Below, piece by piece: positions 25,642 to 39,010 of a stretch of DNA of 39,010 nt (position 1 is the stretch's first letter; the number at the start of each line of letters is the position of its first letter). The stretch is from NCBI GenBank assembly GCA_900314565.1, contig OMVU01000079.1, positions 1-39,010 on the forward strand, written 5' to 3'. The position numbers were made by a program, and so were the translations under genes. A model generated the notes under the pieces. That model did not search any database and had not been told where the DNA came from. It saw only the letters and a program-made list of their open reading frames with translations. The stretch is from an uncultured Eubacteriales bacterium (lineage in GTDB: Bacteria; Bacillota; Clostridia; Lachnospirales; Lachnospiraceae).

Positions 25642-27105
25642 ATGAAACTGGAACAGCTTTCCGGCTGTGAACTCGGTCGGCTGGTAAACAAGGGCGAAGT
25701 TTCGCCGACGGAGGTAATTCAATATTTCAGAAAAAGAATCGAGGAGAGAAATCCCTCTGTAAATGCGTTTACTTACACAAAGTTTGAAGACGCCTTTGCG
25801 GAAGCAGGAAAGCTGGAAAAACGTCTTGCAGGAAGGGAAGACTGCGGGCCTCTGGCCGGTGTCCCGATCGCGCTGAAAGATTTTCTTCCTTCCAAATCCG
25901 GGTGGACAAATTCCCACGGCGGCGTAAAGTCTCTGATTCAGAAGGACACAGAGGACTCTGTTTTTTACAGAGCAGCAAACATGGCCGGGGCGATCGCAGT
26001 CGGGAAGACCAATGCGCCGGCCTTTGCTTTCCGGGGAACAACGGATAATCTGCTCTACGGGCCGACTTCCACTCCGTTCAGGCCCGGGTACAATTCAGGC
26101 GGCTCTTCCGGCGGCAGTGCTGCCGCAGTTGCAGACGGCATGATCCTGATCGGCGAGGGGTCGGACGGGGGAGGATCGATCCGGATCCCCGCATCCTGGT
26201 GCGGCTGCTTCGGCTTCAAAGCGTCCGTCGGTACGATTCCGAGTGTCAACAGGCCCGATGGTTGGGCTGCGTCCCATCCGTACTGTTTTAACGGCGCAAT
26301 TACAAAGACGGTAGAAGACAGTGCCGTGATGCTGGAATACATGGCGTATTACGATCCGAGGGATCCGCACAGCGTATTCCGTGAAAAAAGAAATTTCAGA
26401 GAGCTCATGAAGAAGCCGCTGAAAAATGTCAGGATCGGCTATACAGATGATTTCGGTATTTTTCCGGTGGATAATGAAGTAAAGCGGATCGTCCGGAAAG
26501 CAGCGCTGCGCTTCCGTGAGGCGGGGGCAGTTGTGGAACCGGTGGAATTTCATTTTCCGCACACTCACAATGAGTATGCGGAATTCTGGTGCCGCAGTAT
26601 CTGCTTTGACACAGCGACAGATATGGAATTATGGAAGCGAAAAGGGTTCGACCTTGTAAAGGATCACCGGGATGAACTGCCGGAAGAATTTATTTACTGG
26701 AATGCAGAGGTCATGAAGGCGGACATCATGGATTTCAGAGCCATGAATGAGATGCGGACAGAGATCCTGGATGTACAGGAGGATGTTTTCAGAAGGTATG
26801 ATCTGATCCTCTCACCGGTCACGATCTGTGCTCCGGTCCCGAATGCGTCAGACGGGAACACGAAGGGCCCGGAAGAGGTAAACGGACAGAGGACAGAGCC
26901 GCTGATCGGCTTTTGTGAAACATTCTTCGAGAACTTTACCGGCAATCCGGCTGCTTCCGTTCCGGCAGGGCTGACTGATGCCGGGCTGCCTGTCGGAATG
27001 CAGATCATCGGCAGAAAGTTCATGGATGAGGATGTTCTTGCAGCGGCGTACACATATGAGCAGATCAATCCCTGGTTCTATGATATTCCTCTCGGCAGGA
27101 TGTGA
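25642..27105 (+). CDS. Amidase signature family enzyme
   Basis: 487 residues, full length. The Ser-cisSer-Lys triad can be placed: K79 in GVPIALKDF, the cis-Ser in GGSSGGSAAAVADG (S155/S156) and nucleophile S179 in GSDGGGSIRIPAS. The C-terminal GNPAASVPAGLTDAGLPVGM block is standard. The family hydrolyses amides and includes GatA, but gatB/gatC are absent here and the sequence lacks the typical GatA end, so a general amidase is preferred. GGAGGAGG precedes ATG 25642. The stop codon is the first triplet of the 34-bp array. Confidence 0.9.
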   Translation: MKLEQLSGCELGRLVNKGEVSPTEVIQYFRKRIEERNPSVNAFTYTKFEDAFAEAGKLEKRLAGREDCGPLAGVPIALKDFLPSKSGWTNSHGGVKSLIQKDTEDSVFYRAANMAGAIAVGKTNAPAFAFRGTTDNLLYGPTSTPFRPGYNSGGSSGGSAAAVADGMILIGEGSDGGGSIRIPASWCGCFGFKASVGTIPSVNRPDGWAASHPYCFNGAITKTVEDSAVMLEYMAYYDPRDPHSVFREKRNFRELMKKPLKNVRIGYTDDFGIFPVDNEVKRIVRKAALRFREAGAVVEPVEFHFPHTHNEYAEFWCRSICFDTATDMELWKRKGFDLVKDHRDELPEEFIYWNAEVMKADIMDFRAMNEMRTEILDVQEDVFRRYDLILSPVTICAPVPNASDGNTKGPEEVNGQRTEPLIGFCETFFENFTGNPAASVPAGLTDAGLPVGMQIIGRKFMDEDVLAAAYTYEQINPWFYDIPLGRM

Positions 27106-27238
27106 TCTCAGCCGCAGACTTATCCTGACTTCAGATTGATCTCAGCTGCAGAATTATTCTGAAGTGAGTTCGATCTCAGCCGCCTGATTATTCTGACTTG
27201 AGTTTGATCTCAGCCGCAGACTTTTTGTAACATTAGTT
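27103..27238 (+). repeat. Four-unit 34-bp tandem array
   Basis: Four imperfect units of exactly 34 bp (27103-27136, 27137-27170, 27171-27204, 27205-27238), each starting (T/C)GATCTCAGC(C/T)GC and three ending AGTT. It begins at the amidase TGA stop and sits before the riboswitch leader. A minisatellite-like array. Confidence 0.87.
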
Positions 27239-27328
27239 CATGGCTCAATTCCTGCCGTTCTTTCCGGGAAATTCCATGAAATATGTTCTTAATGTCTTTA
27301 AGATTTCATATGCCGCAGGGATTTTTTG

Positions 27329-27337
27329 TGTTATAAT
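27329..27337 (+). promoter_or_regulatory. Extended -10 promoter for the riboswitch-transporter transcript
   Basis: TGTTATAAT gives the extended TGN plus TATAAT form; no good -35 box is seen 17 bp upstream. The transcript would start at about 27344, right at the first leader hairpin. Confidence 0.55.
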
Positions 27338-27343
27338 AGCCCC

Positions 27344-27410
27344 GCTCTCAAAAGAGAGCCAAGCAGTTCGGGTCCGATATCCTGCTTGTAAAACATTAAA
27401 ACCAAAGGAG
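27344..27410 (+). ncRNA. preQ1 riboswitch (preQ1-I-like) before the queuosine-precursor transporter gene
   Basis: A leader hairpin GCTCTC-AAAA-GAGAGC (27344-27359) is followed by stem P1 AAGCAG (27361-27366) / CTGCTT (27382-27387). The loop contains TTCGGGT, and an A-rich tail GTAAAACATTAAAACC follows. GGT in the loop can pair with ACC (27401-27403) to make the H-type pseudoknot, which lies directly against the Shine-Dalgarno AAAGGAG. Short P1, UUCG-type loop, A-rich tail and pseudoknot next to the SD are the marks of preQ1 aptamers with translational control. The downstream transporter gene fits. The exact preQ1 class is uncertain. Confidence 0.7.
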
Positions 27411-27417
27411 AAAAAAA

Positions 27418-28170
27418 ATGAAGCATTTGAGAAGTACCATTGAGGAGTACAAAGTACTCCTGCGCAGCGTGCCCGCTATGGTCATCGCTGTCTTTATTTT
27501 GTCTGTCGTCCTGATGAATCTTCTGGCAGGCAGAGAACTTTACCGTTCGGATTACTTTTGTCTGAACACCGGTCTTGCACTGTCATGGATTTCCTTCCTG
27601 TGCATGGACTGCATCTGCAAACGTTTCGGGGCAAAAGCTGCCACAAGAATTTCCGTAGTCGCGATCGTTGTCAATATGATCTGTGCCGTCATTTTCTGGC
27701 TGCTGATGAAGACACCGGGACAGTGGGCAGCATATTATTCAGCCGGCGAGCCGGTGACGGGGCAGATGATCACGGCAGGGATTGACAGCACTTTTGCCGG
27801 AGCCTGGTACGTTGTACTGGGATCCTCCGCAGCTATGCTGGCCAGTTCGGTCGTCAACTCCCATCTGAACCATATGGTCGGAGAGAGGGCCGACAACGGC
27901 AGGTACAGCGGGTTCGCGGCAAGAAGCCTTGTGTCTACCTGTATTGCCCAGTTCGTTGACAACTTCGTCTTTTCGGCACTGGTCTCTCATGTCTTTTTCG
28001 GATGGAACTGGACACAGGTCATCATCTGCTCCTTTACCTCGATGCTGATTGAACTGGGCCTGGAAGCTGTTTTCACACCCGTCGGCTACAGAATTTCGTC
28101 AGCATGGGAGAAGGAACATGTTGGTGAAAACTATATTATATTCCGTAACAGAGCAGCCGGGCAGATATAA
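27418..28170 (+). CDS. VUT family queuosine precursor transporter
   Basis: 250 residues with about six membrane helices: AMVIAVFILSVVLMNLLAG near the start, then LALSWISFLCMDCICKRFGA, and later AARSLVSTCIAQFVDNFVFS, VFFGWNWTQVIICSFTSMLI. RSLVSTCIAQFVDNFVF is the DxF/SxxAQFxDxxVF block of the YhhQ/VUT family, which imports preQ0, preQ1 or queuine for tRNA modification. AAAGGAG lies 7 nt before ATG 27418 inside the riboswitch tail, so preQ1 would shut off synthesis of its own importer. Confidence 0.87.
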   Translation: MKHLRSTIEEYKVLLRSVPAMVIAVFILSVVLMNLLAGRELYRSDYFCLNTGLALSWISFLCMDCICKRFGAKAATRISVVAIVVNMICAVIFWLLMKTPGQWAAYYSAGEPVTGQMITAGIDSTFAGAWYVVLGSSAAMLASSVVNSHLNHMVGERADNGRYSGFAARSLVSTCIAQFVDNFVFSALVSHVFFGWNWTQVIICSFTSMLIELGLEAVFTPVGYRISSAWEKEHVGENYIIFRNRAAGQI

Positions 28171-28229
28171 AATTGACAGGGCTTTCCGGCAGAACGGACG
28201 AAAAGAACACCTCTTGGTAAAAATTATGC

Positions 28230-28252
28230 CCGGATCGTTCGAAGCGGTCCGG
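28230..28252 (+). terminator. Probable terminator after the transporter gene
   Basis: CCGGATCG (28230-28237) pairs with CGGTCCGG (28245-28252), eight pairs with one G-U, loop of 7. It is followed by actttgcattt, a weak T tract. Confidence 0.45.
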
Positions 28253-28280
28253 ACTTTGCATTTATGAGAGCAGTTTAGAT

Positions 28281-29678
28281 ATGACTTCTATTTTTGACAG
28301 GAAATTTGTTCGTCACACTATGGCGGTCGCTCTGCCGATCATGCTTCAGAACGGCATCACGAATTTTGTGAATATGCTGGACAATATTATGGTCGGAAGA
28401 GTCGGCACGGATCCGATGACGGGTGTCTCGATCGTGAACACCCTGCTTTTTGTATGGAACCTGTGTGTGTTCGGAGGACTCTCTGGAATCGGGATCTTCA
28501 CCGCTCAGTACTGCGGGAAAGAGGACCATGAAGGCGTTCGGTGGACCTTCCGCCTGCAGCTTATTGTGGCAGTCGTGCTTACTGTGGCAGGCCTGGCGGT
28601 CTTCACATTTTACGGGGAACAGCTGATCGGTCTGTACCTGCAGGAAGATAATGGCGGCGGATCTCCGGAACTGACCCTGCAGGCAGCGGCAGCTTATCTC
28701 GCAGTCATGTGCGTGGGCTTTCTGCCGTTCGCAATCACGCAGGCCTATTATTCCGTTATCCGCGCACATGAGGAGACAGTCGCGCCCATGGTGGCTTCCT
28801 TTATTGCAGTGGGCGTGAATCTGCTGGGAAATTATATCCTTATTTTCGGAAAATTCGGCGCGCCTGCCCTTGGAGTTGTGGGCGCAGCTGCTGCAACTGT
28901 CATAGCCAGGTTCACAGAGCTGCTCTTTATCGTGATCTGGGCGCACACGCATACAGAAAAGCTGCCATTTATCGTCGGGGCTTTTCGAAGTCTGTATGTG
29001 CCGAAGGCACTCATGGCGGCGTGCATTCAGAAAGGGACCCCTCTTCTTATGAACGAGGCTCTGTGGTCCGGGGCACAGGCCATGCTGGCGCAGTGCTACA
29101 GTGTGCGCGGTCTGTCCGTTGTGTCAGCATTCAATATTTCCCAGACCTTAGGAAATGTTTTCAATGTTGCCTTTATCGCCATGGGTTCGGCTACAGCAAT
29201 TATTATGGGACAGAGGCTGGGAGAATGGGGCGAGTCGCGAGCAAAGGAGCTTAAGAAAGAAGCCTGGAAACTCACATTCTTTTCTGTTCTGCTGTGCGTG
29301 GTTTCCGCAATCCTGATGGCAGCGGTATCCGGTCTGTTTCCGCTCATTTACAGGACGACGGACGAGATCCGTCATCTCGCGAGCGGTCTCATCTGTATAG
29401 CTGCTCTTTTCATGCCTGTGCACGCATTTAATAATGCTGCGTATTTCATTATCCGGTCAGGCGGAAAAACATTTGTCACATTCCTTTTCGATTCGTGTTT
29501 CTGCTGGATCGCGTCTTTACCAATGGCTTTTTTCCTGGCGCACTATACGAAGGTGCCGATTCTTGCACTCTATGCGGTCGTGAGCTCAGTTGAGCTGATC
29601 AAGGTGGCGATCGGAAGCATTTTGATCAACAAGGGCATCTGGATCAAAGATATTACGGTATCCGGTATTGATTTCTGA
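28281..29678 (+). CDS. MATE family efflux transporter
   Basis: 465 residues, twelve membrane helices. It opens RHTMAVALPIMLQNGITNFV and NMLDNIMVGRVGTDPMTGVS, the normal MATE start, and contains RAHEETVAPMVASFIAVGVN near helix 5 and AFNISQTLGNVFNVAFIAMG in the second half. MATE exporters use Na+ or H+ to move drugs, dyes or natural products out. The Shine-Dalgarno is weak. It is the first of three MATE genes in 9 kb, and its sequence is only distantly like the other two, so they are not recent duplicates. Confidence 0.92.
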   Translation: MTSIFDRKFVRHTMAVALPIMLQNGITNFVNMLDNIMVGRVGTDPMTGVSIVNTLLFVWNLCVFGGLSGIGIFTAQYCGKEDHEGVRWTFRLQLIVAVVLTVAGLAVFTFYGEQLIGLYLQEDNGGGSPELTLQAAAAYLAVMCVGFLPFAITQAYYSVIRAHEETVAPMVASFIAVGVNLLGNYILIFGKFGAPALGVVGAAAATVIARFTELLFIVIWAHTHTEKLPFIVGAFRSLYVPKALMAACIQKGTPLLMNEALWSGAQAMLAQCYSVRGLSVVSAFNISQTLGNVFNVAFIAMGSATAIIMGQRLGEWGESRAKELKKEAWKLTFFSVLLCVVSAILMAAVSGLFPLIYRTTDEIRHLASGLICIAALFMPVHAFNNAAYFIIRSGGKTFVTFLFDSCFCWIASLPMAFFLAHYTKVPILALYAVVSSVELIKVAIGSILINKGIWIKDITVSGIDF

Positions 29679-29724
29679 CGCAGACGAGGCGTTCTGATCA
29701 AAGCGAAGAAACAGGTGCATGGAG

Positions 29725-29915
29725 TTGAAGAAGAATTGTTAAGTGTGATATAGTAGTGACAGCCGAGGCTCCTTAAGCTGACGACGGCCGGGAGACATAT
29801 TTTGCCCACGAATGCCTGAAGGCACACGTAGCTGCAAAACAGTCATCCGAGGCCATTAAGTCAGACATCAAAACGATGTTTTGGGAGGGGATGACAGGGG
29901 CAAGGCCGATAAATA
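29725..29915 (+). ncRNA. Candidate structured non-coding RNA between MATE and flavodoxin genes
   Basis: A promoter-like TTGAAG (29724-29729), 18 bp and TATAGT lead into a compact region full of nested stems. CGGCC (29785-29789) pairs with GGCCG (29904-29908) and encloses two arms. Arm 1: TTTTGC/GCAAAA (29800-29805 and 29834-29839), then ACG/CGT, then TGCC-TGAA-GGCA (29813-29824). Arm 2: GTCATCC/GGATGAC (29842-29848 and 29889-29895) enclosing ACATC-AAAAC-GATGT (29865-29879). No ORF fits. It resembles no RNA family I can name with confidence. Confidence 0.45.
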
Positions 29916-29983
29916 TTTTTAGTGCTGACACGTCTGCCATATCCTGCGGGTCATTTCAACTATAGTGAAAGAAGGTATATTTT

Positions 29984-30460
29984 ATGGAGAAAAAACTGGT
30001 TGCTTACTTTTCTGCATCGGGCGTAACAAAGAAGGTGGCGGAGGAAATCGCGGAAATTGAACAGGCAGATCTTTTCGAGATCACACCGGAGATTCCCTAC
30101 ACGAAAGCGGATCTGGACTGGAGAGACAAAAATTCAAGGTCGACTGTCGAGATGAATGATCCGAACTGCCGCCCGGCGATCGTGGGAAAGCCGGCGGACG
30201 ATTATGACGTGATCTTTGTCGGTTTTCCGATCTGGTGGGGCAGGGAGCCCAGCGTTGTCGATACGTTTCTTGATCAGCTGACAGGTGAGGGAAAAGTGAT
30301 TATCCCGTTCTGCACATCCGGAGGAAGCGGTTTCGGCAATACAAGTGAAAGAATCAATAATCTGACCGGCAGAAAGTTCAAAGTGCTGGAAGGAAAACGG
30401 TACGGCGGAAGTGTATCACTTAAAGATCTGAAGATCTGGATGGATGAGCTGGGAATGTAA
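29984..30460 (+). CDS. Flavodoxin
   Basis: 158 residues. The FMN phosphate loop is near the start (VAYFSASGVTKKVAEEIAEI), with FVGFPIWWGREPSVVDTFLD for the isoalloxazine side and IPFCTSGGSGFGNTSERIN for the third loop. This is the Flavodoxin_4 type common in gut Firmicutes. It binds FMN and carries electrons, or acts as an NADPH-quinone-reductase-like protein. AGAAGG precedes ATG 29984. A terminator follows closely, so it is monocistronic. Confidence 0.92.
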   Translation: MEKKLVAYFSASGVTKKVAEEIAEIEQADLFEITPEIPYTKADLDWRDKNSRSTVEMNDPNCRPAIVGKPADDYDVIFVGFPIWWGREPSVVDTFLDQLTGEGKVIIPFCTSGGSGFGNTSERINNLTGRKFKVLEGKRYGGSVSLKDLKIWMDELGM

Positions 30461-30491
30461 GAACAGCGTCTCGTCCTGTATGAAGAAGAGG

Positions 30492-30532
30492 CAGCGGTCA
30501 AGGTCATCTCAACGAAATGACCTTGGCCGCTG
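30492..30532 (+). terminator. Terminator of the flavodoxin gene
   Basis: CAGCGGTCAAGGTCAT (30492-30507) pairs with ATGACCTTGGCCGCTG (30517-30532), sixteen pairs with one G-U, followed by tccttt. Confidence 0.85.
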
Positions 30533-30540
30533 TCCTTTCA

Positions 30541-30964
30541 GGTCCGGCCTCTCCTCAGAGCACTTTATGGAATTGTTTCGGGTCATTAATGATTCTGATT
30601 TCATAGTCCGACCCTGTAAGAGCGCAGCGCTCGCCGGCCGCCTGGAGAGGGATGCAGGGAAGACAGCTATCGATTTCTGAACGTTAACAAGCTGCTGTAA
30701 TCAGAAGAGAAGACAGGTCATATAGCTGACAAGTACAGAAATGCCGGCTGCAGATCGATCTTCCATCCTGATTGCGGCAGCTTTTTCTTTTCACTTCAGC
30801 AGCGCAGCAAATTATCGGAACGGGAACGAACAGGACAGACTGGCAAAGTCCTGGAAATTGGCGTATGATGTTAGAAATGAAGAAAGTGAAGCTACTACTA
30901 TATATTCAGTGGTTGATCATGGAAATATAACCGGCTTATCGGATGAGAAAAAAGGCAATACAAA
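30541..30964. other. Gap without a supported gene
   Basis: 424 bp with only doubtful short ORFs. A GCTGC/GCAGC hairpin with a TTTTTCTTTT tract ends near 30792. A plus-strand ORF (30741-30968) has no family resemblance or start site. A minus-strand stretch ending LTGSDYEIRIINDPKQFHKV and a stop (about 30550-30615) looks coding-like and may be a small gene remnant, but no more can be said. Confidence 0.4.
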
Positions 30965-32338
30965 GTGAAGAACACCAACAGAAATATTTCGCAATTTGAT
31001 AAGATGACACGAACGCCGATCCCTCAGCTCATTGTGACACTGTCGGTCCCCAGCGTCATCTCCATGCTGGTCAACAATATTTATAATCTGGTGGATACAG
31101 CTTTCGTCGGACGTCTCGGGACTAGCGCGAGCGGAGCGGTCGGCGTAGTGTTCGGCTTCATGTCCATCCTTCAGGCGTTCGGCTTTATGTTCGGCCAGGG
31201 ATCCGGCAGCATTCTTTCCAGAGCGCTCGGTCGGCAGGACCGGGAAACGGCCTCCGTCAGCGCTTCGTCCGGTTTTTTCGGGTCGCTTTTTTTCGGATCT
31301 GTCATTTCTGTTCTGGGCCTTCTGTGTCTGGATGACCTTGTTATGATGCTTGGAAGTACGGTGACTATTGCGCCGTACGCCAGGACTTACATTTTCTATA
31401 TTCTCACGGCAGCTCCCTTTATGTGCTCGAGTCTTACGATGAACAGCATACTTCGCTATGAAGGGAAAGCCGCTCTCGGCATGGTCGGCCTGATGTCCGG
31501 AGCAGTCCTGAATATGATCGGAGATCCGATCCTCATGTTCGGACTGGACATGGGAATCGCCGGCGCGGGCCTTTCCACAGCCATGAGCCAGATCATAAGC
31601 TGGGGGATCCTTCTTTTTATGTTCCTTTCCGGGCGAACAGAGACAAGACTGAGCTTTCGGCGTGCGGTGCGGGCAGGTCTTCCTGTCTATGTGAATATCA
31701 TGACGACCGGATTTCCGAGTCTTCTCCGCCAGGGCCTGAACAGCATAACCACGGTTCTCTTAAATTCCTGCTGTGCGGTCTACGGAGACGCGGCGGTCGC
31801 CGCGATGAGTATCGTGAACAGGATCATATTTTTTGCATTTTCCATTGCCATCGGAATCGGGCAGGGATTTCAGCCGGTATCCGCTTTCAATTACGGGGCC
31901 GGCAGATATTCAAGGATCCGAAAAGGGTACCGATTCACCGCCATGCTGTCTGAGTCGCTGATTCTGGTCGGATGTACTGTGATCCTGCTGTTCTCGGGAA
32001 AGCTGATCGGTCTGTTCAGGAATGACCCGGAAGTCATTGCGATCGGGACGCGGGCCCTTCGCCTGCAGGCGGCAGCGTATCTGCTTCTTCCGATCTGTAT
32101 GACCACGGAGATGCTCTTCCAGAGCACTGGAAAACGTCTGAATGCGACCCTGCTTTCTGCACTTCGAAGCGGGCTGTTGTTCATTCCGACCCTGCTTATT
32201 CTTTCACGTATCAGGGGACTCGCCGGTATTCAGGAGGCGCAGCCGCTGTCGGTCGTGCTCTCATTTCCGATCACGCTTATCATCGCTGTACGCTTTTTCG
32301 GGAAACTGCCGAAAGAAGATGCGGTGCAGATCCGTTAG
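30965..32338 (+). CDS. MATE family efflux transporter
   Basis: 457 residues from GTG 30965; AAAGG lies 9 nt upstream. It begins MTRTPIPQLIVTLSVPSVIS and MLVNNIYNLVDTAFVGRLGT, the NorM/DinF-type MATE opening, and has GQGFQPVSAFNYGAGRYSRI between the halves, the GxGxQPxxxFNxGA motif of the MepA-like MATE group. Twelve helices are expected. The function is drug or metabolite export coupled to cation influx. It is not linked to a regulator in the window. Confidence 0.93.
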   Translation: MKNTNRNISQFDKMTRTPIPQLIVTLSVPSVISMLVNNIYNLVDTAFVGRLGTSASGAVGVVFGFMSILQAFGFMFGQGSGSILSRALGRQDRETASVSASSGFFGSLFFGSVISVLGLLCLDDLVMMLGSTVTIAPYARTYIFYILTAAPFMCSSLTMNSILRYEGKAALGMVGLMSGAVLNMIGDPILMFGLDMGIAGAGLSTAMSQIISWGILLFMFLSGRTETRLSFRRAVRAGLPVYVNIMTTGFPSLLRQGLNSITTVLLNSCCAVYGDAAVAAMSIVNRIIFFAFSIAIGIGQGFQPVSAFNYGAGRYSRIRKGYRFTAMLSESLILVGCTVILLFSGKLIGLFRNDPEVIAIGTRALRLQAAAYLLLPICMTTEMLFQSTGKRLNATLLSALRSGLLFIPTLLILSRIRGLAGIQEAQPLSVVLSFPITLIIAVRFFGKLPKEDAVQIR

Positions 32339-32471
32339 ATGTCATGAATGTCTCGGCTTTCCTGCCTCATTTTGCGTATTCAGCATAGGCCTGCGTCACG
32401 GGGCTTCTGTGCCGGGATTAAATTTTCATACAAGACTTGAGAAAGACAATCAGCTGATATAAAATCAAAGT

Positions 32472-32682
32472 TAGTCTATTATCAGGCTCTTGCGAAACTC
32501 TGAGCGAAATGGAATTGTGTGAACAATTCAAACAATCTGCACAAGCCTTAGAACTTCTTCATGAACGAAAGATGTGGAATGCATCTTGAGTGAATGTTAG
32601 AAGTTCTTGGCGCGGAAGCCGTTTGAATGTTCATACAATTTCCATGGAGCTCAGACTTTCGCAATTGCCTGTAGTCTATTAT
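32472..32682. repeat. 11-bp direct repeats flanking the MITE-like element
   Basis: TAGTCTATTAT occurs at 32472-32482 and again at 32672-32682, exactly 200 bp apart and directly abutting both ends of the inverted-repeat element. They look like a target-site duplication. Confidence 0.8.
32483..32671. mobile_element. MITE-like full palindrome (189 bp) in the NRPS leader
   Basis: Terminal inverted repeats CAGGCTCTTGCGAAA (32483-32497) and TTTCGCAATTGCCTG (32657-32671) match at 13 of 15 positions. Inside, CTGAGC, TGGAATTGTGTGAACA, TTCAAAC and AGAACTTCT on the left each have inverted partners on the right, so nearly the whole element folds as one long hairpin. No ORF is inside. With the direct repeats it has the form of a non-autonomous transposon. 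It lies between the preceding MATE gene and the Shine-Dalgarno of the NRPS gene. Confidence 0.83.
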
Positions 32683-32706
32683 GCCGAAAAGGAGGAGTAC
32701 TAGAGT

Positions 32707-35682
32707 ATGATTCTGGAAACGTTACAGAAGTATACCGCAGAGTATCCGAATGAGCCTATTCTCTTTGATGACGCGCATTCCAAGGGAATTACATATACGC
32801 AGTTTGACGAAATGACAGGAAAGGTCTATGCCTGGCTCAAGGAGCAGGGAATCGGCAAGGAGGATTTTGTCCTCATAAATCTGCCGAGAGGCGTTTTTCC
32901 GATTGTTGCCATGGTCGGTGTATGGAAAGCGGGAGCAGCGTGGGCTCTCGTGGAAGATACCTATGCGCCCGAACGGATCGCTTATATCCGCAAGGACTGC
33001 GGCTGCACTGCAGAACTCAACAAGGATAACTGGGATATCGTTATGCATACGAAACCGCTTGCCGGTTTCGTGATGTCAGATCCCCATGATGCGGCGTATG
33101 CGATCTATACGTCCGGAACGACGGGAAACCCGAAAGGCGTTCTGCATGAGTACGGAAATCTCGAGCGGGCGATCGAATCGATCAAGCTGAACGGAGAGAC
33201 CCCGTTCAACTCGAAGGACAGGCTCGCTCTGCTTGCGCCTCTGAACTTTGTGGCGTCCATTATTGTTATCCTGAAGTGCCTGAGCATTCCCTGCGGCAGG
33301 AATTATGTCGTTCCCTACGCGGTGATCAAGAACCCGATGATGCTCATGAAGTTCTTCCTCGAGAAGCGGATCACTATCACGTTCCTCACACCGTCCTACG
33401 TCAGAAAGCTTGGAAACAAGTCGGGACCGTTCCTCCGCATGCTGATCGTGGGAAGCGAGCCCGCCAACAATATCTATAACAAGAACGTTCAGCTGGTCAA
33501 TGTCTATGCAGCCAGTGAGAGCGGCTTTGCCGTCGGAATATTTATCATCGATAAGGCTTATGAGACCTGCCCGATCGGAAAACCGGAGGTCAGCACGGAG
33601 ATCAGGCTTCTGGATGAGGACGGAAATGAAGTGCCGGACGGAGAGACGGGAGAGCTCTGCTTTGAGAATCCGTATGTCCGCGGGTACATTAATCTTCCGG
33701 AGGAAACGAAGAAAGCCTTCACGGACGGTTTTTATCACACCGGCGACCTTGCACGGAAGAATGCCGACGGAAACTATGTCCTGCTGGGAAGAAGCGGCGA
33801 TATGATCAAGATCAACGGGAACAGGATCGAGCCGGCTGAGATCGAAGCTGCAATCAGGCAGGCCCTGGGAGTCAAGTGGGCTGCCGCAAGGGGATTTGAA
33901 GATAACGATAAGAGTTTCCTGTGTGCATATTATAAGGAAGATGTCAAATTTGATCAGGAAGAACTTCGGAATGACCTCATGAGACGTCTGCCCTACTATA
34001 TGATTCCTTCTTACTATATCAAGGTGGATGAGATCCCGCTCAAGGCCAACGGCAAGATGGACCGTCTGGCACTTCCGAAGCCGGATATCAGCGATTTCCG
34101 GTCGGATTATGTTGCGCCCACAAATGAGACGGAGGAGAAGCTCTGCAGGGCATTTGAGAAAGTCCTGAAGATCGACCGTGCGGGAATTCATGATGATTTC
34201 TATGAGATGGGAGGAGATTCCCTCACATCCATCGAACTGATCGTAGAGAGCGGTCTTCCGGGGCTGAACGCGAGTGAAGTGTTCCGCGGCCGCACGCCGG
34301 AGAAGATCGCGGAACTGTATGAAGAGATGCATGCAAACGACGACGGGGAGAGTCCGGAGGAGAAAAATGCCCGCTCGATGCAGATCGCGCATCCCCTCAC
34401 CACGGAGCAGCTCTATATGGTCGACTATCAGCTCTACACACCGAACTCGACCATGTACAATCTGTATTCCATGATGAAGCTGGATCTCGAGAGCTACGAT
34501 ATGGAGCAGATGGCTTCCGTCATGCAGTCCGTGATCAGGAGCCATCCGGCGCTCATGACGATGTATTTCTGGAATGACGACGGAGAGCTCATGCAGAAGT
34601 ATACGCCGGAGATCCTCCAGGATATCCATGTGGAGAAGATGTCCGAGTTCGAGTTCCGGTTCGTCAAGGACACATTGGTCTATCCGTTCAAGATCGTCGG
34701 CGGGAAGCTGTATCGCTGCCGCGTCTTTGAGACGGAGAAGGCAGGATATATCTTCTTCGACGTGCATCACTCTCTGTTCGACGGCACATCCCTGAAGATC
34801 CTGATGGATAATGTCGGAAAAGTCACTGCGGGCATGCAGCCGGATACGGATTACTACTACCTGATGCTCCAGAACAGGGAGGACGCGCTTGCCTCCGCGT
34901 TCTACGAGGAGAGCAGAAAGTATTTTGAGGATCGTTATGAGGGCATAGACTGGACATGGCATCCTGAGTTCGACCATGAGACCAGAAAGAATGAGATGGG
35001 AGAGCTCTTCACGGAAATCGGTCTTCTTCAGCCCCAGATGACAGCGATGGAACGCGCATATAAGATCACGAGAAATGAGTTCTTCATCACGATTGCCGCT
35101 CTCGCTGTATCGATCTACACGAATAAGAATGATATCATGCTTTCCTGGATCTACAACGGCAGGGAAGATGTGCAGAATCTCTCCACGATCGGTCTTCTGT
35201 TCAGAGATCTTCCGGTCGGCGTCCGTCTCAGAGATAATATGACCTTGCGTGAGCTCTTCGCGGATGTTCATGATCAGGTCCAGAGAGGCATCGAGCACAG
35301 CTGCTATCCGTATGTGGAGAAAAACGGCCAGAACCTTACCAATGAGACGGTCTACCTGCTCTATCAGCAGGATATCCGCGATATGGACAGCTACGGAATC
35401 GAGACGATCGACATCCGTCAGAATCAGGCGGCGTCTCAGTCCGTCCTCGACATCGAGATCCTCGACGGCTCGGACGGCCTTCAGATGATGATCGACTATT
35501 TCGCAAGTCTGTATGACGATGAGAGCATCGAAAGATTCAAGGATATTTACATTAAGACAGCGCATGCTGTCGCAACGCACAATTCACAGTCTGACGTGAC
35601 GATCAGAGAGCTCAAGGATAAGCTCAGCGATAAGAAGAACTTCTTCCAGGTCATCGTTGGAATCTTCTCCAGGAAGAGGTAA
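32707..35682 (+). CDS. Compact nonribosomal peptide synthetase, domains A-T-C
   Basis: 991 residues. Adenylation domain (about 1-460): A3 AIYTSGTTGNPKG (132-144), A5 NVYAASESG (265-273), A7 YHTGDLA (343-349), A8 GRSGDMIKINGNRIEPAEIE and the catalytic lysine K450 in NGKMDR. Carrier domain (about 465-545): DDFYEMGGDSLTS with phosphopantetheine Ser505. Condensation domain (about 560-980): DVHHSLFDG with H687, H688, D692, G693. The protein activates one building block, tethers it, and may condense it with a second acyl or amine partner. No thioesterase or reductase is present, and the A4 block reads LNFVAS instead of FDxS. AAAAGGAGGAG precedes ATG 32707. A MATE exporter follows in the same operon. 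Confidence 0.92.
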   Translation: MILETLQKYTAEYPNEPILFDDAHSKGITYTQFDEMTGKVYAWLKEQGIGKEDFVLINLPRGVFPIVAMVGVWKAGAAWALVEDTYAPERIAYIRKDCGCTAELNKDNWDIVMHTKPLAGFVMSDPHDAAYAIYTSGTTGNPKGVLHEYGNLERAIESIKLNGETPFNSKDRLALLAPLNFVASIIVILKCLSIPCGRNYVVPYAVIKNPMMLMKFFLEKRITITFLTPSYVRKLGNKSGPFLRMLIVGSEPANNIYNKNVQLVNVYAASESGFAVGIFIIDKAYETCPIGKPEVSTEIRLLDEDGNEVPDGETGELCFENPYVRGYINLPEETKKAFTDGFYHTGDLARKNADGNYVLLGRSGDMIKINGNRIEPAEIEAAIRQALGVKWAAARGFEDNDKSFLCAYYKEDVKFDQEELRNDLMRRLPYYMIPSYYIKVDEIPLKANGKMDRLALPKPDISDFRSDYVAPTNETEEKLCRAFEKVLKIDRAGIHDDFYEMGGDSLTSIELIVESGLPGLNASEVFRGRTPEKIAELYEEMHANDDGESPEEKNARSMQIAHPLTTEQLYMVDYQLYTPNSTMYNLYSMMKLDLESYDMEQMASVMQSVIRSHPALMTMYFWNDDGELMQKYTPEILQDIHVEKMSEFEFRFVKDTLVYPFKIVGGKLYRCRVFETEKAGYIFFDVHHSLFDGTSLKILMDNVGKVTAGMQPDTDYYYLMLQNREDALASAFYEESRKYFEDRYEGIDWTWHPEFDHETRKNEMGELFTEIGLLQPQMTAMERAYKITRNEFFITIAALAVSIYTNKNDIMLSWIYNGREDVQNLSTIGLLFRDLPVGVRLRDNMTLRELFADVHDQVQRGIEHSCYPYVEKNGQNLTNETVYLLYQQDIRDMDSYGIETIDIRQNQAASQSVLDIEILDGSDGLQMMIDYFASLYDDESIERFKDIYIKTAHAVATHNSQSDVTIRELKDKLSDKKNFFQVIVGIFSRKR

Positions 35683-35690
35683 AAAGAAAG

Positions 35691-37061
35691 ATGGAAGAGC
35701 AACAGAAATTTGCGCAGGATGAGGAGCTGGCTCAGGATTTTTCATTCTGGTCGCTGTTTAAATTTACCGGGCCCAGCATCTTTACTTTTGTGTTCATAGC
35801 TGTCTATCAGATGGTGGACGGTCTGTTCATTGAACGCTATGTGGGCGATCTGGCAATCAGTGCGATCAATCTGTATTACCCGGTCATCTCTCTCTTCATT
35901 GCGATCGGTATCATGATCGGGACCGGTGGCAATGCGGTGATCGTGCGGAAAGTCGGGCAGGGAAAGCGGAAGGAAGCCGGCCAGACATTCTCGAGAGTCA
36001 TCGTCTTTACGATCTTCATCGGAGCTATCATAACGTTTGTCTGCGTGACTTTCGCAGATCCGATCATGAAGCTCTGCGGGGCTACACAGGGAAATATTGA
36101 GTATCTGCGTCCGTACTACATGCTTCTGTCAGCATTTGCGATCACGATCCTGCTCCAGTCGGAGCTGGGCATCCTCATTATCGGGGAAGGCCAGACCGTC
36201 GTTGCAGCCATCGTTATCATGATCGGCGGTGTCCTTAACTGTGTCCTGGACTTCTACTTTATGGAGCATCTCAAGCTCGGCATCTGGGGTGCAGCTGCCG
36301 CGACAGTCATCGGATACTGCAGTACGATCATTTATGCGATCTGGTTCTACGTCATTGCCAAAAAGAGCTCCTACAAGCTTGAACTGGCAAAGCCGAATCT
36401 CAGGGAGATCGGTATTATCTGCTTTAACGGATCTTCGGACATGGTCAGTAACCTTGCCGGCGGTGTCAGCGTGCTCTTTATGAATCATCTGGCTTTCCGC
36501 TGCTACGGAGAAGTCGGCGTCAGCGCGCTCTCCGTCATCACGTATCTGCAGTTCCTGATCGAAGCGGTGTTCATGGGCTATACGACCGCTGTGGAGCCGG
36601 TTTTTTCCTACCACTATGGCAGCGGAAATATTGAAATGCGCAAGAGAGTATATAAGTACAGCATAAGATGGTGCTTCCTTCTCGGAGCGGTCCTGATCGT
36701 AGTCCTCTATTTCCTGCGAGGGCTTATCATAGGCATTTACTTTAAGCCGGATACGGAGTTTTACAGGATATCCCTTCTGGGTTACATGATCTCCCTCCCG
36801 GCATGCCTCTTCACAGGGTATAACACATTTGGCTCGGGGCTCTTTACCGCTTTCTCGAACGGAGTTGTCTCCGGTTTTCTGTCTCTGGTCCGCACATTTT
36901 TCGTGCTGGTCATCTGCCTGTTCGCAATGACAGCCCTGTTCGGCGGATACGGACTCTGGAGTGCGTGGCCGGCAGCGGAGTTCATCAGCTTTATTATCAC
37001 AGCGATCTTCCTCTGGAAATATCGCGGCCGATATAAGTACGCTGATCTGCGGAAAGCATGA
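35691..37061 (+). CDS. MATE family efflux transporter linked to the NRPS
   Basis: 456 residues, twelve helices. It begins SLFKFTGPSIFTFVFIAVYQ and MVDGLFIERYVGDLAISAIN (MATE start) and includes FMGYTTAVEPVFSYHYGSGN, the MepA-like motif between halves. The gene starts 8 bp after the NRPS stop, and its Shine-Dalgarno AGGAAGAGG lies inside the NRPS end, so the two genes are translated from one message. That makes export of the NRPS product the natural role, by inference. It is unlike the other two MATE proteins in detail. Confidence 0.92.
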   Translation: MEEQQKFAQDEELAQDFSFWSLFKFTGPSIFTFVFIAVYQMVDGLFIERYVGDLAISAINLYYPVISLFIAIGIMIGTGGNAVIVRKVGQGKRKEAGQTFSRVIVFTIFIGAIITFVCVTFADPIMKLCGATQGNIEYLRPYYMLLSAFAITILLQSELGILIIGEGQTVVAAIVIMIGGVLNCVLDFYFMEHLKLGIWGAAAATVIGYCSTIIYAIWFYVIAKKSSYKLELAKPNLREIGIICFNGSSDMVSNLAGGVSVLFMNHLAFRCYGEVGVSALSVITYLQFLIEAVFMGYTTAVEPVFSYHYGSGNIEMRKRVYKYSIRWCFLLGAVLIVVLYFLRGLIIGIYFKPDTEFYRISLLGYMISLPACLFTGYNTFGSGLFTAFSNGVVSGFLSLVRTFFVLVICLFAMTALFGGYGLWSAWPAAEFISFIITAIFLWKYRGRYKYADLRKA

Positions 37062-37123
37062 CGATATCGTGAACATGGAAAATATCAGCACACCCCGGCG
37101 GATCGCAGCCGCGCAGAGAGTAA

Positions 37124-37171
37124 GGTGCTTCGCACCCTGCCCGGCGCGGCAGGAACGCCGGGGCGTTCTTG
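37124..37171. repeat. Structured repeat family 2, copy C
   Basis: GGTGC-TTC-GCACC (37124-37136), a GC-rich link, and CAGGAACGCC/GGCGTTCTTG (37150-37171). It has the same 48-bp length as 11671-11718 with a few substitutions. It lies between the exporter and guaA and could end the exporter transcript. Confidence 0.82.
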
Positions 37172-37211
37172 ATAAGCGTAAAGATTCCTGATTAATATAC
37201 GGAGGGAACAG

Positions 37212-38756
37212 ATGTCAAGAGAAATGATTGTTATTCTGGATTTCGGAGGGCAGTACAAGCAGCTGATCGCAAGGCGTGTGAGAGAATGCAGAGTTTACTG
37301 CGAGATCCATCCGAACACGCTTCCCGTCTCTGAGATTGCTGCGATGAATCCGAAGGGGATCATCCTGACCGGCGGACCGAACAGCGTCTATGCAGAGGGA
37401 ACGCCGACAGCAGATCCTGCATTATTCTCCCTGGGCGTGCCGGTCCTCGGGATCTGCTATGGGTCCCAGCTCATGGCGCACCTTCTGGGCGGCAGGGTCG
37501 CGACGGCACCTGTCAGTGAGTACGGCCACACGGATCTTCTGATCGACCGGGCTGACTCTGCGATCTTTGCGGGTGTCGCGTCTGAGACGAGCGTGTGGAT
37601 GAGCCATACGGACTATATTGCAGAGGTTCCGGACGGTTTTCAGGTGACTGCACATACGGCAAACTGTCCTGTCGCTGCGATGGAAAATGAAAAACGCGGA
37701 CTCTATGCGGTCCAGTTCCATCCGGAAGTCATGCACACGCCGGAAGGCAGCAAGATGCTGCACAGCTTTGTGCGGAATGTCTGCGGATGTGCCGGTGACT
37801 GGAAGATGTCCTCCTTTGTGGATGAACAGATCCATGCGCTCAGAGAAAAGGTCGGAAACGGCAGAGTACTCTGCGCCCTCTCCGGCGGAGTGGATTCTTC
37901 CGTAGCGGCGGTGCTTCTGTCCAGGGCGGTCGGAAAGCAGCTGACCTGTGTCTTCGTCGATCACGGGCTTCTCCGTAAAAATGAAGGCGATGAGGTCGAG
38001 GCTGTCTTCGGGCCGAACGGGTCTTACGACCTGAATTTTGTGCGGGTGAACGCACAGAAGCACTTCTATGAAAAACTGGCCGGTGTGACGGATCCTGAGA
38101 AGAAACGAAAGATCATCGGTGCTGAATTTATCAACGTATTTGAGGCGGAAGCGAAAAAAATCGGCGCTGTCGATTATCTTGTTCAGGGCACGATCTATCC
38201 GGATGTGGTGGAGAGCGGGCTCGGACAGGGCGCGGTCATCAAATCGCATCACAATGTAGGAGGTCTCCCGGATCATGTCGATTTCAGGGAGATCATAGAA
38301 CCGCTCCGCATGCTGTTCAAGGATGAGGTGAGGCAGCTTGGTATTGAGCTCGGTATACCGGGATATCTGGTATACCGACAGCCGTTCCCGGGCCCGGGAC
38401 TTGGCGTGCGTATCGTCGGTGAGATCACGGAGGAGAAGGTCCGGATCGTCCAGGAAGCGGATAAGATCTTCCGGGATGAGCTTGCGCAGTCTGGAACGGA
38501 CAGAATGCTCGGACAGTACTTTGCGGCCCTTACCAATATGAGGAGCGTGGGCGTCATGGGTGACGGAAGGACCTATGACTATGCGGTCGTGCTCAGGGCG
38601 GTCCTCACGACGGATTTTATGACGGCGGAAGCGTGTGAAATACCCTGGAGCGTGCTGCAGACATGCATGACGCGGATCATCAATGAGGTCAAAGGGGTGA
38701 ACCGCGTGCTGTATGATCTGACGAGTAAGCCGCCGGGGACGATTGAGCTGGAATAA
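37212..38756 (+). CDS. guaA: GMP synthase (glutamine-hydrolysing)
   Basis: 514 residues, full length. The glutamine amidotransferase domain has nucleophile C82 in GICYGSQ and H170/E172 in FHPEV. The ATP-pyrophosphatase P-loop is SGGVDSS (224-230). The C-terminal dimerisation domain ends [18 protein letters not shown]. The enzyme amidates XMP to GMP in the cytosol. GGAGGG precedes ATG 37212. A terminator follows directly. The 3' end of guaA is a known integration hotspot for genomic islands in several bacteria, and the flank here has an unknown ORF and direct repeats. Confidence 0.98.
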
Positions 38757-38765
38757 ATATTGAAC

Positions 38766-38805
38766 GTCCGGAAACCAGCATAAACACTGGGTTTCCGGAC
38801 TTTTT
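38766..38805 (+). terminator. Terminator of guaA
   Basis: GTCCGGAAACC (38766-38776) pairs with GGTTTCCGGAC (38790-38800), with a further CAG/CTG inside, followed by TTTTT. Confidence 0.92.
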
Positions 38806-38816
38806 CTATGTCTCGT

Positions 38817-38834
38817 GAGTACATTTTGAGTACA
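38817..38834. repeat. GAGTACA direct repeat after guaA
   Basis: GAGTACA at 38817-38823 and 38828-38834, an 11-bp period, between the guaA terminator and the converging ORF. Such short direct repeats occur at integrase arm sites, but here that is only a possibility. Confidence 0.4.
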
Positions 38835-38844
38835 CTTTTCAAAA

Positions 38845-39010
38845 TTATTCCGTTTCAGAGTCGGCATCATCGCTGTGGTCACAGGTCTTATCCAGTTTCT
38901 TCTGAGACGCTTGCAGGTCCAGCTCGATCTGCTCCAGCATCTCCCGAAAATCATCAGCGACATATTTCTCATCTTCAGAAGAATTTCCTTTTGTCAGCAG
39001 CTCCTGATCC
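38845..39010 (-). CDS. 3' end of an unidentified minus-strand gene (5' end outside window)
   Basis: The minus frame is open from the right edge to TAA at 38847-38845. The visible 54 residues read DQELLTKGNSSEDEKYVADD, then FREMLEQIELDLQASQKKLD and KTCDHSDDADSETE. It is polar and acidic with a coiled-coil-like helix, and no domain is recognisable. Its position converging on guaA, with GAGTACA repeats between, would suit the end of an integrase or another island gene, but the residues do not show it. Codon use looks like that of a real gene. Confidence 0.5.
   Translation of the reverse strand, partial: DQELLTKGNSSEDEKYVADDFREMLEQIELDLQASQKKLDKTCDHSDDADSETE

What the first reader, a model, noticed from the sequence alone, without database searches (positions are those of the whole stretch)
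32707..37061. Minimal NRPS-exporter locus: A-T-C synthetase plus MATE transporter
One three-domain synthetase (A, carrier with Ser505, condensation with HHSLFDG) and one MATE exporter 8 bp downstream form a two-gene make-and-export unit. A terminal condensation domain without thioesterase or reductase leaves the release step open: release could be by condensation with a free amine or acyl partner, giving an amide-linked small molecule. No 4'-phosphopantetheinyl transferase is in the window. Such a bare architecture is not one I can match to a described gut NRPS product.
Basis: partly seen in the sequence, partly recalled or inferred. Interest (0 to 1): 0.72.

Follow-up and report, generated by a model that had tools for sequence, protein, structure and literature searches.

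The report
One-module conjugating enzyme with exporter gene
A gut bacterium of the Lachnospiraceae carries an intact, conserved two-gene unit that probably joins a small carboxylic acid to another small molecule on a one-module assembly enzyme and pumps the product out; similar enzymes recur in related bacteria, but their product is unknown.

Summary
In detail: 32707-35682 encodes a 991-aa A-T-C synthetase and, 8 bases on, 35691-37061 a MATE transporter. It is not a truncated remnant: intact close relatives are stand-alone proteins of about 990-1000 aa, and both genes are under purifying selection (dN/dS 0.06-0.14). Two points refine the reading. (1) The A domain lacks the Asp that binds an alpha-amino group (Val182) and the A5 proline (Ala269). 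Both losses run through this family and mark A domains for keto, hydroxy or other acids. (2) The C domain falls in a moderately supported group of condensation domains that all sit at protein C-termini, so it is probably a release domain using a soluble acceptor; in six near-complete genomes it is the only condensation domain detected. The MATE gene is kept beside all five same-genus copies of at least 80% identity, at two or more sites, and in one homologue of another genus, but not beside the 72-50% relatives. Other relatives lie beside MATE-HATPase fusions, STAS or SpoIIE-HATPase genes. The nearest known logic is the split fatty-acid-amide pathway of gut Clostridia and fungal A-T-C enzymes. 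New variant of a known kind; substrates and export are inferred.

The parts
32707..35682 (+). A-T-C synthetase gene, 991 aa
   Evidence: orthologues 94/88/80% over the full length
32707..34080 (+). adenylation (A) domain, residues 1-458; specificity code VAIFIGVFAK by alignment to LgrA (GrsA numbering recalled)
33250..33252 (+). codon of Val182, at the position of GrsA Asp235 (alpha-amino contact)
33511..33513 (+). codon of Ala269, at the position of the A5 proline (YGPTE)
34135..34311 (+). carrier (T) domain; phosphopantetheine site Ser505 at 34219-34221
34390..35616 (+). condensation (C) domain, terminal type; HHSLFDG at 34765-34785
35691..37061 (+). MATE exporter gene, 456 aa; groups with the MATE proteins linked to A-T-C in the genus and in L071
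32437..32465 (+). sigma-70-like promoter candidate (TTGAGA-17-TAAAAT), both hexamers unchanged in the relative L059
   Evidence: consensus match only (9 sites in the region, 4.7 expected by chance)
32483..32671 (+). 189-bp inverted-repeat element (MITE-like) in the 5' leader, flanked by 11-bp repeats 32472-32482 and 32672-32682; absent in L059
32690..32697 (+). Shine-Dalgarno-like AGGAGGAG, 9 bases before the ATG
   Evidence: read from the sequence

Best explanation
A one-module acyl-conjugating synthetase with its exporter. The A domain activates, with ATP, a carboxylic acid without a free alpha-amino group (an alpha-keto or hydroxy acid, or another small or hydrophobic acid) and loads it on the phosphopantetheine of Ser505. 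The C-terminal condensation domain then joins the acyl group directly to a soluble acceptor (an amine or amino acid, or an alcohol), which releases the product without a thioesterase. The MATE protein, encoded 8 bases downstream, pumps the product out. Shown: domains, motifs, gene pair, conservation, selection, phylogenetic placement. Inferred: class of acid, soluble acceptor, co-transcription, export.
For: A, T and C with their catalytic motifs. Val182 replaces Asp235 and Ala269 the A5 proline. Among 75 distinct A4/A5 motif pairs, 31 of 31 with Asp have the proline, against 3 of 44 without Asp (three of the 44 are other AMP ligases). Of 12 long proteins seen with an N-terminal A domain, 10 have it Asp-less, and the second A domain, in view in 9 of those 10, has Asp. 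A review ties loss of this Asp, and of the proline, to alpha-hydroxy and alpha-keto acids (PMC11253843, passages and section 2.5). The C domain lies in a 29-row group whose C domains all end 1-31 aa before the C-terminus; none of the 12 C domains that follow a first A-T unit in longer proteins is in it. In six genomes 95-100% complete (G251, G301, G234, G333, G667, G450; 23 searched) the A-T-C holds the only Condensation match at E 1e-6. The fungal A-T-C enzyme AneB joins its T-bound residue to a soluble alcohol (PMC10720950). dN/dS 0.062-0.142 for A-T-C and 0.095-0.118 for MATE against three orthologues. The genus MATE group joins L071's MATE, 100/100. In G030 both genes are missing at a site where G011 has both.
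Against: Loss of Asp235 does not exclude an amino acid: McyG has Val there and is reported with L-Phe (PMC11253843). Two stand-alone A-T-C-length genes, L131 and L135, keep Asp235; they fall with other A domains. The C motif is the canonical HHxxxDG of carrier-dependent C domains. Support for the whole terminal-C group is weak (80/53; inner 24 rows 87/97), and some C-terminal C domains (three of L130, L053, L111, the free FAA type) lie outside it. A carrier charged by another A domain could still be the acceptor: the own genome has other carriers. The Condensation search can miss divergent domains: it found none in G670, which has an A-T-C. No MATE is next to the 72, 68, 55 and 50% relatives. 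One relative (L073, 57%) is cut short at 513 aa with a damaged carrier motif. The structure model failed, so the pocket rests on sequence alignment. No product is known.
Confidence: 0.6

Rival explanations
1. Trans-acting starter module: the A-T-C loads an acyl starter, and its C domain passes it to an aminoacyl carrier protein made elsewhere, which continues or releases the chain.
For: Asp-less A domains are the first domains of longer NRPSs in kin; the own genome has ten PP-binding matches, the A-T-C's own included, and two free C-carrier-A sets.
Against: The C domain groups with C-terminal C domains and not with those that follow first A-T units in longer proteins. Six near-complete genomes have no other Condensation match. 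The window's contig has no other PP-binding match; carriers beside kin loci were not searched for.
Confidence: 0.15
2. It activates an ordinary hydrophobic alpha-amino acid in an unusual pocket and makes an aminoacyl amide or dipeptide.
For: The best NCBIfam models are NRPS models (AusA NF047350 307.1 bits, cut-off 2500; TIGR01733 223.5 bits, cut-off 317.4), a little ahead of an acyl-CoA ligase model (PRK06187, 200.2 bits); McyG precedent with Val at 235.
Against: Joint loss of Asp235 and of the A5 proline across the family; use of such domains as first domains of longer NRPSs.
Confidence: 0.15
3. The synthetase and the MATE are unrelated neighbours; the MATE is a general drug pump and the pairing is hitch-hiking in a MATE-rich region (three MATE genes within 9 kb).
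For: Two further MATE genes lie upstream (28281-29678, 30965-32338); MATE is absent beside the 72-50% relatives.
Against: The pair occurs at two different genomic sites in the genus (guaA site: window, L055, L059; YkuD site: L056); a MATE of the same group is near the A-T-C of L071, and MATE proteins of other groups are beside A-T-C in further lineages (L062/L063, L125-L128).
Confidence: 0.15
4. A decaying or silent remnant of a longer NRPS.
For: A 189-bp hairpin element sits in the leader; the copy in the MAG G034 is split over three frames; G030 keeps only fragments; L073 is cut short.
Against: Window copy intact, dN/dS 0.06-0.14, nearest relatives stand-alone.
Confidence: 0.04

Closest known systems
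Fatty-acid-amide (Oaa-type) NRPS-like pathway of gut Clostridia (PMC13142362: abstract, introduction, one results section and passages read)
   Same: A activates a non-amino acid, a carrier holds it, a C domain joins it to a soluble amine and so releases it; gut Clostridia.
   Different: There A, carrier and C are three proteins and the C motif is (D/H)HxxxDS or a variant; here they are fused with HHxxxDG. Window A matches the own-genome FAA-type A only in part (55.8 bits) and window C has no significant match to the FAA-type C. The word exporter does not occur in that paper's main text; MATE was not looked up.
Fungal single-module synthetases AneB and ThmA (A-T-C), DrcB (A-T-CT) (PMC10720950: passages read)
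   Same: Same domain order; AneB's C domain joins the T-bound residue to a soluble alcohol; DrcB is said to form an amide between a depside and threonine.
   Different: Fungal; AneB's A domain takes L-proline; no sequence comparison was made here.
First A-T-C units of longer NRPSs in Lachnospiraceae and kin (L012, L013, L044-L048, L051, L054, L117)
   Same: A domain without Asp235, at the N-terminus of the protein.
   Different: Their C domain is followed by further domains and none of the 12 such C rows falls in the window's C group.
Alpha-keto-acid A domains such as StsA of cereulide synthesis (PMC11253843, section 2.5 read)
   Same: Aliphatic residue in place of Asp235 and non-proline at the A5 position (Met in StsA, Ala in the window, Met in 9 of 27 kin genes).
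   Different: Cereulide modules carry an embedded ketoreductase (abstract start in the listing); none here. Substrate untested.
MATE exporters of natural products (NCBIfam models SolL and WgkD; ClbM of colibactin recalled)
   Same: MATE gene beside a biosynthetic enzyme.
   Different: The window MATE scores far below those models' cut-offs (SolL 49.9 of 780, WgkD 31.2 of 510).

Membership tests
NRPS module (A-T-C) | A, carrier with GGxS serine, and C with HHxxxDG in one protein | tested here: met
NRPS module (A-T-C) | phosphopantetheinyl transferase in the cell | tested here: met
   one PF01648 match in the own genome, over the cut-off; that it acts on this protein is not tested
alpha-amino-acid A domain | Asp at GrsA position 235 and proline in A5 (YGPTE) | tested here: not met
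   Val182, Ala269
non-amino-acid (keto/hydroxy) A domain | aliphatic residue at 235 and non-proline in A5 | tested here: met
   PMC11253843
non-amino-acid (keto/hydroxy) A domain | activates the acid in vitro | not testable with these tools
   needs protein
Fatty-acid-amide (Oaa-type) pathway | free-standing A, carrier and C proteins | tested here: not met
   one fused protein
Fatty-acid-amide (Oaa-type) pathway | C domain in the FAA clade, usually (D/H)HxxxDS or DA | tested here: not met
   HHSLFDG; placed apart from the own-genome DHRLVDS proteins
terminal (release) condensation domain | C-terminal position and grouping with other C-terminal C domains | tested here: met
   29 of 29 rows of the group, tails 1-31 aa; group support only 80/53
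terminal (release) condensation domain | uses a soluble acceptor | not testable with these tools
   indirect: sole Condensation match in six genomes
dedicated exporter (MATE) | MATE family, same strand, close spacing | tested here: met
dedicated exporter (MATE) | conserved together with the synthetase | tested here: inconclusive
   five of five same-genus copies of at least 80% identity and L071; absent beside L058, L066, L067, L068
dedicated exporter (MATE) | transports the product | not testable with these tools
   needs mutant or vesicle assay
partner-switching module (HATPase/STAS/SpoIIE) at the window locus | HATPase_c_2 or STAS gene near the A-T-C | tested here: not met
   no HATPase or STAS match among window ORFs of 60 aa or more with models built from kin; SpoIIE not searched; such genes are at 9 of 25 loci

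The most novel reading that the evidence does not exclude
Stand-alone Asp235-less A-T-C synthetases form an undescribed class of acid-conjugating enzymes in Lachnospiraceae and kin whose products are often exported by MATE pumps. In part of the class the pump or partner enzymes carry HATPase or STAS domains, so that a partner switch (kinase, antagonist, SpoIIE phosphatase) gates synthesis or export directly instead of a sigma factor; the window holds the stripped-down form.
Probability: 0.3. Interest if true: 0.75.

Novelty: new variant of a known kind. Interest (0 to 1): 0.52.

Why it matters
Gut Clostridia are known to make host-active acyl amides with a split A/carrier/C pathway. A fused, one-gene version with an exporter beside it, scattered through Lachnospiraceae and present where no other condensation domain is found, would be a second route to small conjugates. 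It is small enough (one enzyme, one pump) to test in vitro directly. The recurring fusion of partner pumps to an anti-sigma-type ATPase suggests a control mode of which the listings of two searches showed nothing.

Tried and rejected
Truncated remnant of a longer NRPS: rejected by relatives and selection. Membership in the fatty-acid-amide pathway: rejected on motif, tree and domain fusion. Partner-switch genes at the window itself: no HATPase or STAS found, and the MATE-HATPase protein of L056 has no match at E 1e-60 in the own genome. Structure prediction: one job on a 3-row alignment gave pLDDT 29 and pTM 0.22, unusable, so no fold search was run. Rfam on 27000-39010 at gathering scores: no match. 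Papers: searches; no title or abstract start in the listings showed a Lachnospiraceae A-T-C plus MATE family; only PMC13142362, PMC11253843, PMC10720950 and PMC10949194 were opened, in parts. MIBiG and antiSMASH were not available.

Rows dropped before counts: L059 (three-frame copy), L060, L061, L064 (run off contig ends), L065, L070, L073, L077-L081 (fragments or other lengths) and L131 (complete at 1026 aa, but with Asp235; no MATE match beside it) are not among the 25 loci; L135 (1041 aa, Asp235) was seen only with short flanks. L131 was left out after its Asp was known, so of 29 complete A-T-C-length genes seen, 27 lack the Asp and 2 keep it. L069 and L072 end within 300 bases downstream of the gene, so a downstream MATE there could not be seen. 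The MATE, HATPase and STAS models were built from some of the same kin sequences, so those rows match by construction.
Full report
What is there. The window is contig C110 of a 4.22-Mb genome. Three kin contigs that could be named are Lachnospiraceae or Clostridia MAGs, one from goat ileum. ORF 32707-35682 (991 aa) carries AMP-binding, PP-binding and Condensation domains, and ORF 35691-37061 (456 aa) is a MATE transporter, 8 bases downstream on the same strand. Catalytic motifs are intact. A GMP synthase gene (guaA) follows at 37212, and another MATE gene ends at 32338. The only PF01648 phosphopantetheinyl transferase match is elsewhere in the genome.

Not a remnant. In 42 genomes of the genus, full-length relatives are at 94% (G041), 88% (G011), 80% (G031) and 50% (G016), with more distant ones at 38% and less; a 94-98% copy in G034 is split over three frames, and G030 has a fragment. 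In 299 family genomes 18 had a match at E 1e-100, own included, among them stand-alone proteins of 72, 68 and 55% and several of 36-42% identity, a 57% relative cut short at 513 aa (L073), and long NRPSs. In 392 order genomes 20 matched a 14-row profile at E 1e-150; in 398 phylum genomes 5 did, of which G687, G806 and G940 lie outside the order, with long NRPSs and one 1062-aa frame. The draws overlap. Pairwise dN/dS (Nei-Gojobori) for A-T-C is 0.062, 0.092 and 0.142 against L055, L056 and L057; for MATE 0.095, 0.114 and 0.118.

Gene pair. Of 25 loci with a complete stand-alone, Asp235-less A-T-C, 10 have a directly adjacent same-strand MATE (window, L055, L056, L057, L062, L063, L125-L128), 2 have one further along (L071, L122), 1 a weak divergent one (L069), and 12 none within 4.5 kb. 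With MatE matches in 12 ORFs and an estimated 3900 genes, chance adjacency is about 0.6%. Counted as about 4 of 14 lineages (my own grouping, not a test of independence) the binomial probability is 1.4e-6, or 1.4e-4 with a harsher 2% rate. In the MATE tree the window's MATE, its four genus orthologues and L071's MATE form one group (100/100), apart from the MATE partners of the other loci. In the genus the pair sits at two sites: beside guaA (window, L055, L059) and beside a YkuD gene with MATE-HATPase and STAS genes (L056); L057's contig is too short to tell. G030 (L065) matches L056 around that site at about 96%, but of the pair it keeps two short A-T-C pieces (76 and 258 bases, 99.6-100% identical) and a few bases of MATE, so both genes are missing together; an assembly fault cannot be excluded.

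What the A domain takes. Aligned to LgrA, the Asp235 position is Val182 and the A5 proline is Ala269. Over 75 distinct motif pairs, Asp and proline go together in 31 of 31, and proline is kept in 3 of 44 without Asp. In the A tree (90 rows) Asp-less and Asp rows part on one branch (SH-aLRT 96); the window lies in a 30-row clade (100), 25 of them from A-T-C-length proteins. Among 12 long proteins with an N-terminal A domain, 10 have it Asp-less (not L120 and L121), followed by an Asp-bearing one in the 9 where it is in view. Two A-T-C-length proteins, L131 and L135, keep Asp and fall with the Asp rows. A review gives aliphatic residues at 235 for alpha-hydroxy and alpha-keto acids and a Met in place of the A5 proline in StsA; changing that proline to Met or Ala in LgrA raised keto-acid activity slightly (PMC11253843). 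The same review notes McyG, with Val at that position and L-Phe. So a non-amino acid is likely, not shown. The code VAIFIGVFAK is the same in L055, L056 and L057 and close in L066-L068, and it varies further out, which suggests one substrate in the genus and several in the family.

How it is released. In the C tree (83 rows) the window's C domain sits in a 29-row group (80/53; inner 24 rows 87/97) whose C domains all end 1-31 residues before the protein's C-terminus, including C domains at the end of longer NRPSs. None of the 12 C domains that follow a first A-T unit in longer proteins is in the group. C-terminal C domains also occur outside it (L130, L053, L111, the free FAA type). In six genomes of 95-100% completeness the A-T-C has the only Condensation match; 16 of the 23 genomes have two or more (in G034 these are two pieces of the one broken gene), and G670, whose A-T-C has a divergent C domain, has none. 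The fungal enzyme AneB shows that such a domain can release onto a soluble alcohol (PMC10720950).

Relation to known gut chemistry. The own genome also carries two sets of free C, carrier and A proteins with IDHRLVDS in the C domain (C and A each about 93.5% alike between the sets, which may be strain copies in a MAG), the motif type of the fatty-acid-amide pathway (PMC13142362). The A-T-C is not of that family: fused, HHSLFDG, distant in tree and BLAST. It would work on the same logic.

Wider setting. At 9 of 25 loci (L056, L062, L063, L071, L076, L122, L125, L129, L130) the neighbours include HATPase_c_2 or STAS domains, often fused. Over Pfam's cut-offs: MATE-HATPase in L056 and L122 (and L064, outside the 25), SpoIIE-HATPase in L076, STAS in L056, LPG_synthase_C-STAS in L071, STAS-APH in L076 and L130. 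Below the cut-off: the HATPase part of MATE-HATPase in L063 and L125 and of the AMP-binding protein of L122. By similarity only: L062 (to L063) and L129 (to L076). L126-L128 gave only weak scores with my own model, and Pfam found no HATPase in L126 and L127 (L128 not sent). The window has no HATPase or STAS match.

Leader element. A 189-bp inverted-repeat element at 32483-32671, with 11-bp flanking repeats, lies between a promoter-like site and the ribosome-binding site. L059 has one copy of the repeat and no element. In the own genome 23 matches, this one included, cover at least 170 of its 189 bases; only 40 of 166 first-look candidates were scored. The RNA folds at -101 kcal/mol, z -10.6. 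It may affect expression; untested.

Verdict. A real, conserved and probably functional make-and-export pair; a fused variant of acid-conjugating NRPS chemistry. The acid, the acceptor and the export remain inferred.

Noticed in passing
window 32483-32671 (repeats 32472-32482, 32672-32682): MITE-like 189-bp inverted-repeat element with 11-bp target-site repeats in the leader of the A-T-C gene; empty site in L059; 23 near full-length matches in the genome, this one included.
   Followed up: yes
L094 (G000:C145) and L095 (G000:C51): Two free-standing C (IDHRLVDS), carrier and A gene sets, about 93.5% alike, of the fatty-acid-amide type described from gut Clostridia.
   Followed up: partly
L056 5949-7724, L062 4789-6543, L063 8634-10400, L064 1-1569, L122 3216-4967, L125 9155-10924: MATE transporters fused to a C-terminal HATPase_c_2-like (anti-sigma-type kinase) domain next to or near A-T-C genes (over Pfam's cut-off in L056, L064, L122); a STAS gene beside the one in L056. 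STAS or SpoIIE genes near other A-T-C genes: L071, L076, L129, L130.
   Followed up: partly
L122 4975-6978: AMP-binding protein with a weak C-terminal HATPase_c_2 match, between an A-T-C and a MATE-HATPase gene.
   Followed up: no
L062 490-1872, L063 4358-5716, L061 4808-6271, L076 2364-3851, L081 135-1568, L129 14705-16192: A conserved 450-495 aa protein near A-T-C or A-T-C-like genes; the two members sent to Pfam (L063, L061) had no match at E 0.001.
   Followed up: no
L066 11099-12772 and L067 6040-7779: In the 72% and 68% relatives a carboxylesterase takes the place of the MATE gene directly after A-T-C.
   Followed up: partly
L130 5211-13964: Three A-T-C-length genes in tandem, with an ABC transporter and a STAS-APH gene nearby.
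   Followed up: no
L079 638-2317: A GH3-family gene (acyl-amide synthetases in plants, recalled) next to an A-T-C-like fragment in G041.
   Followed up: no
window 28281-29678, 30965-32338, 35691-37061: Three MATE genes within 9 kb, a quarter of the 12 ORFs with MatE matches in the genome.
   Followed up: partly
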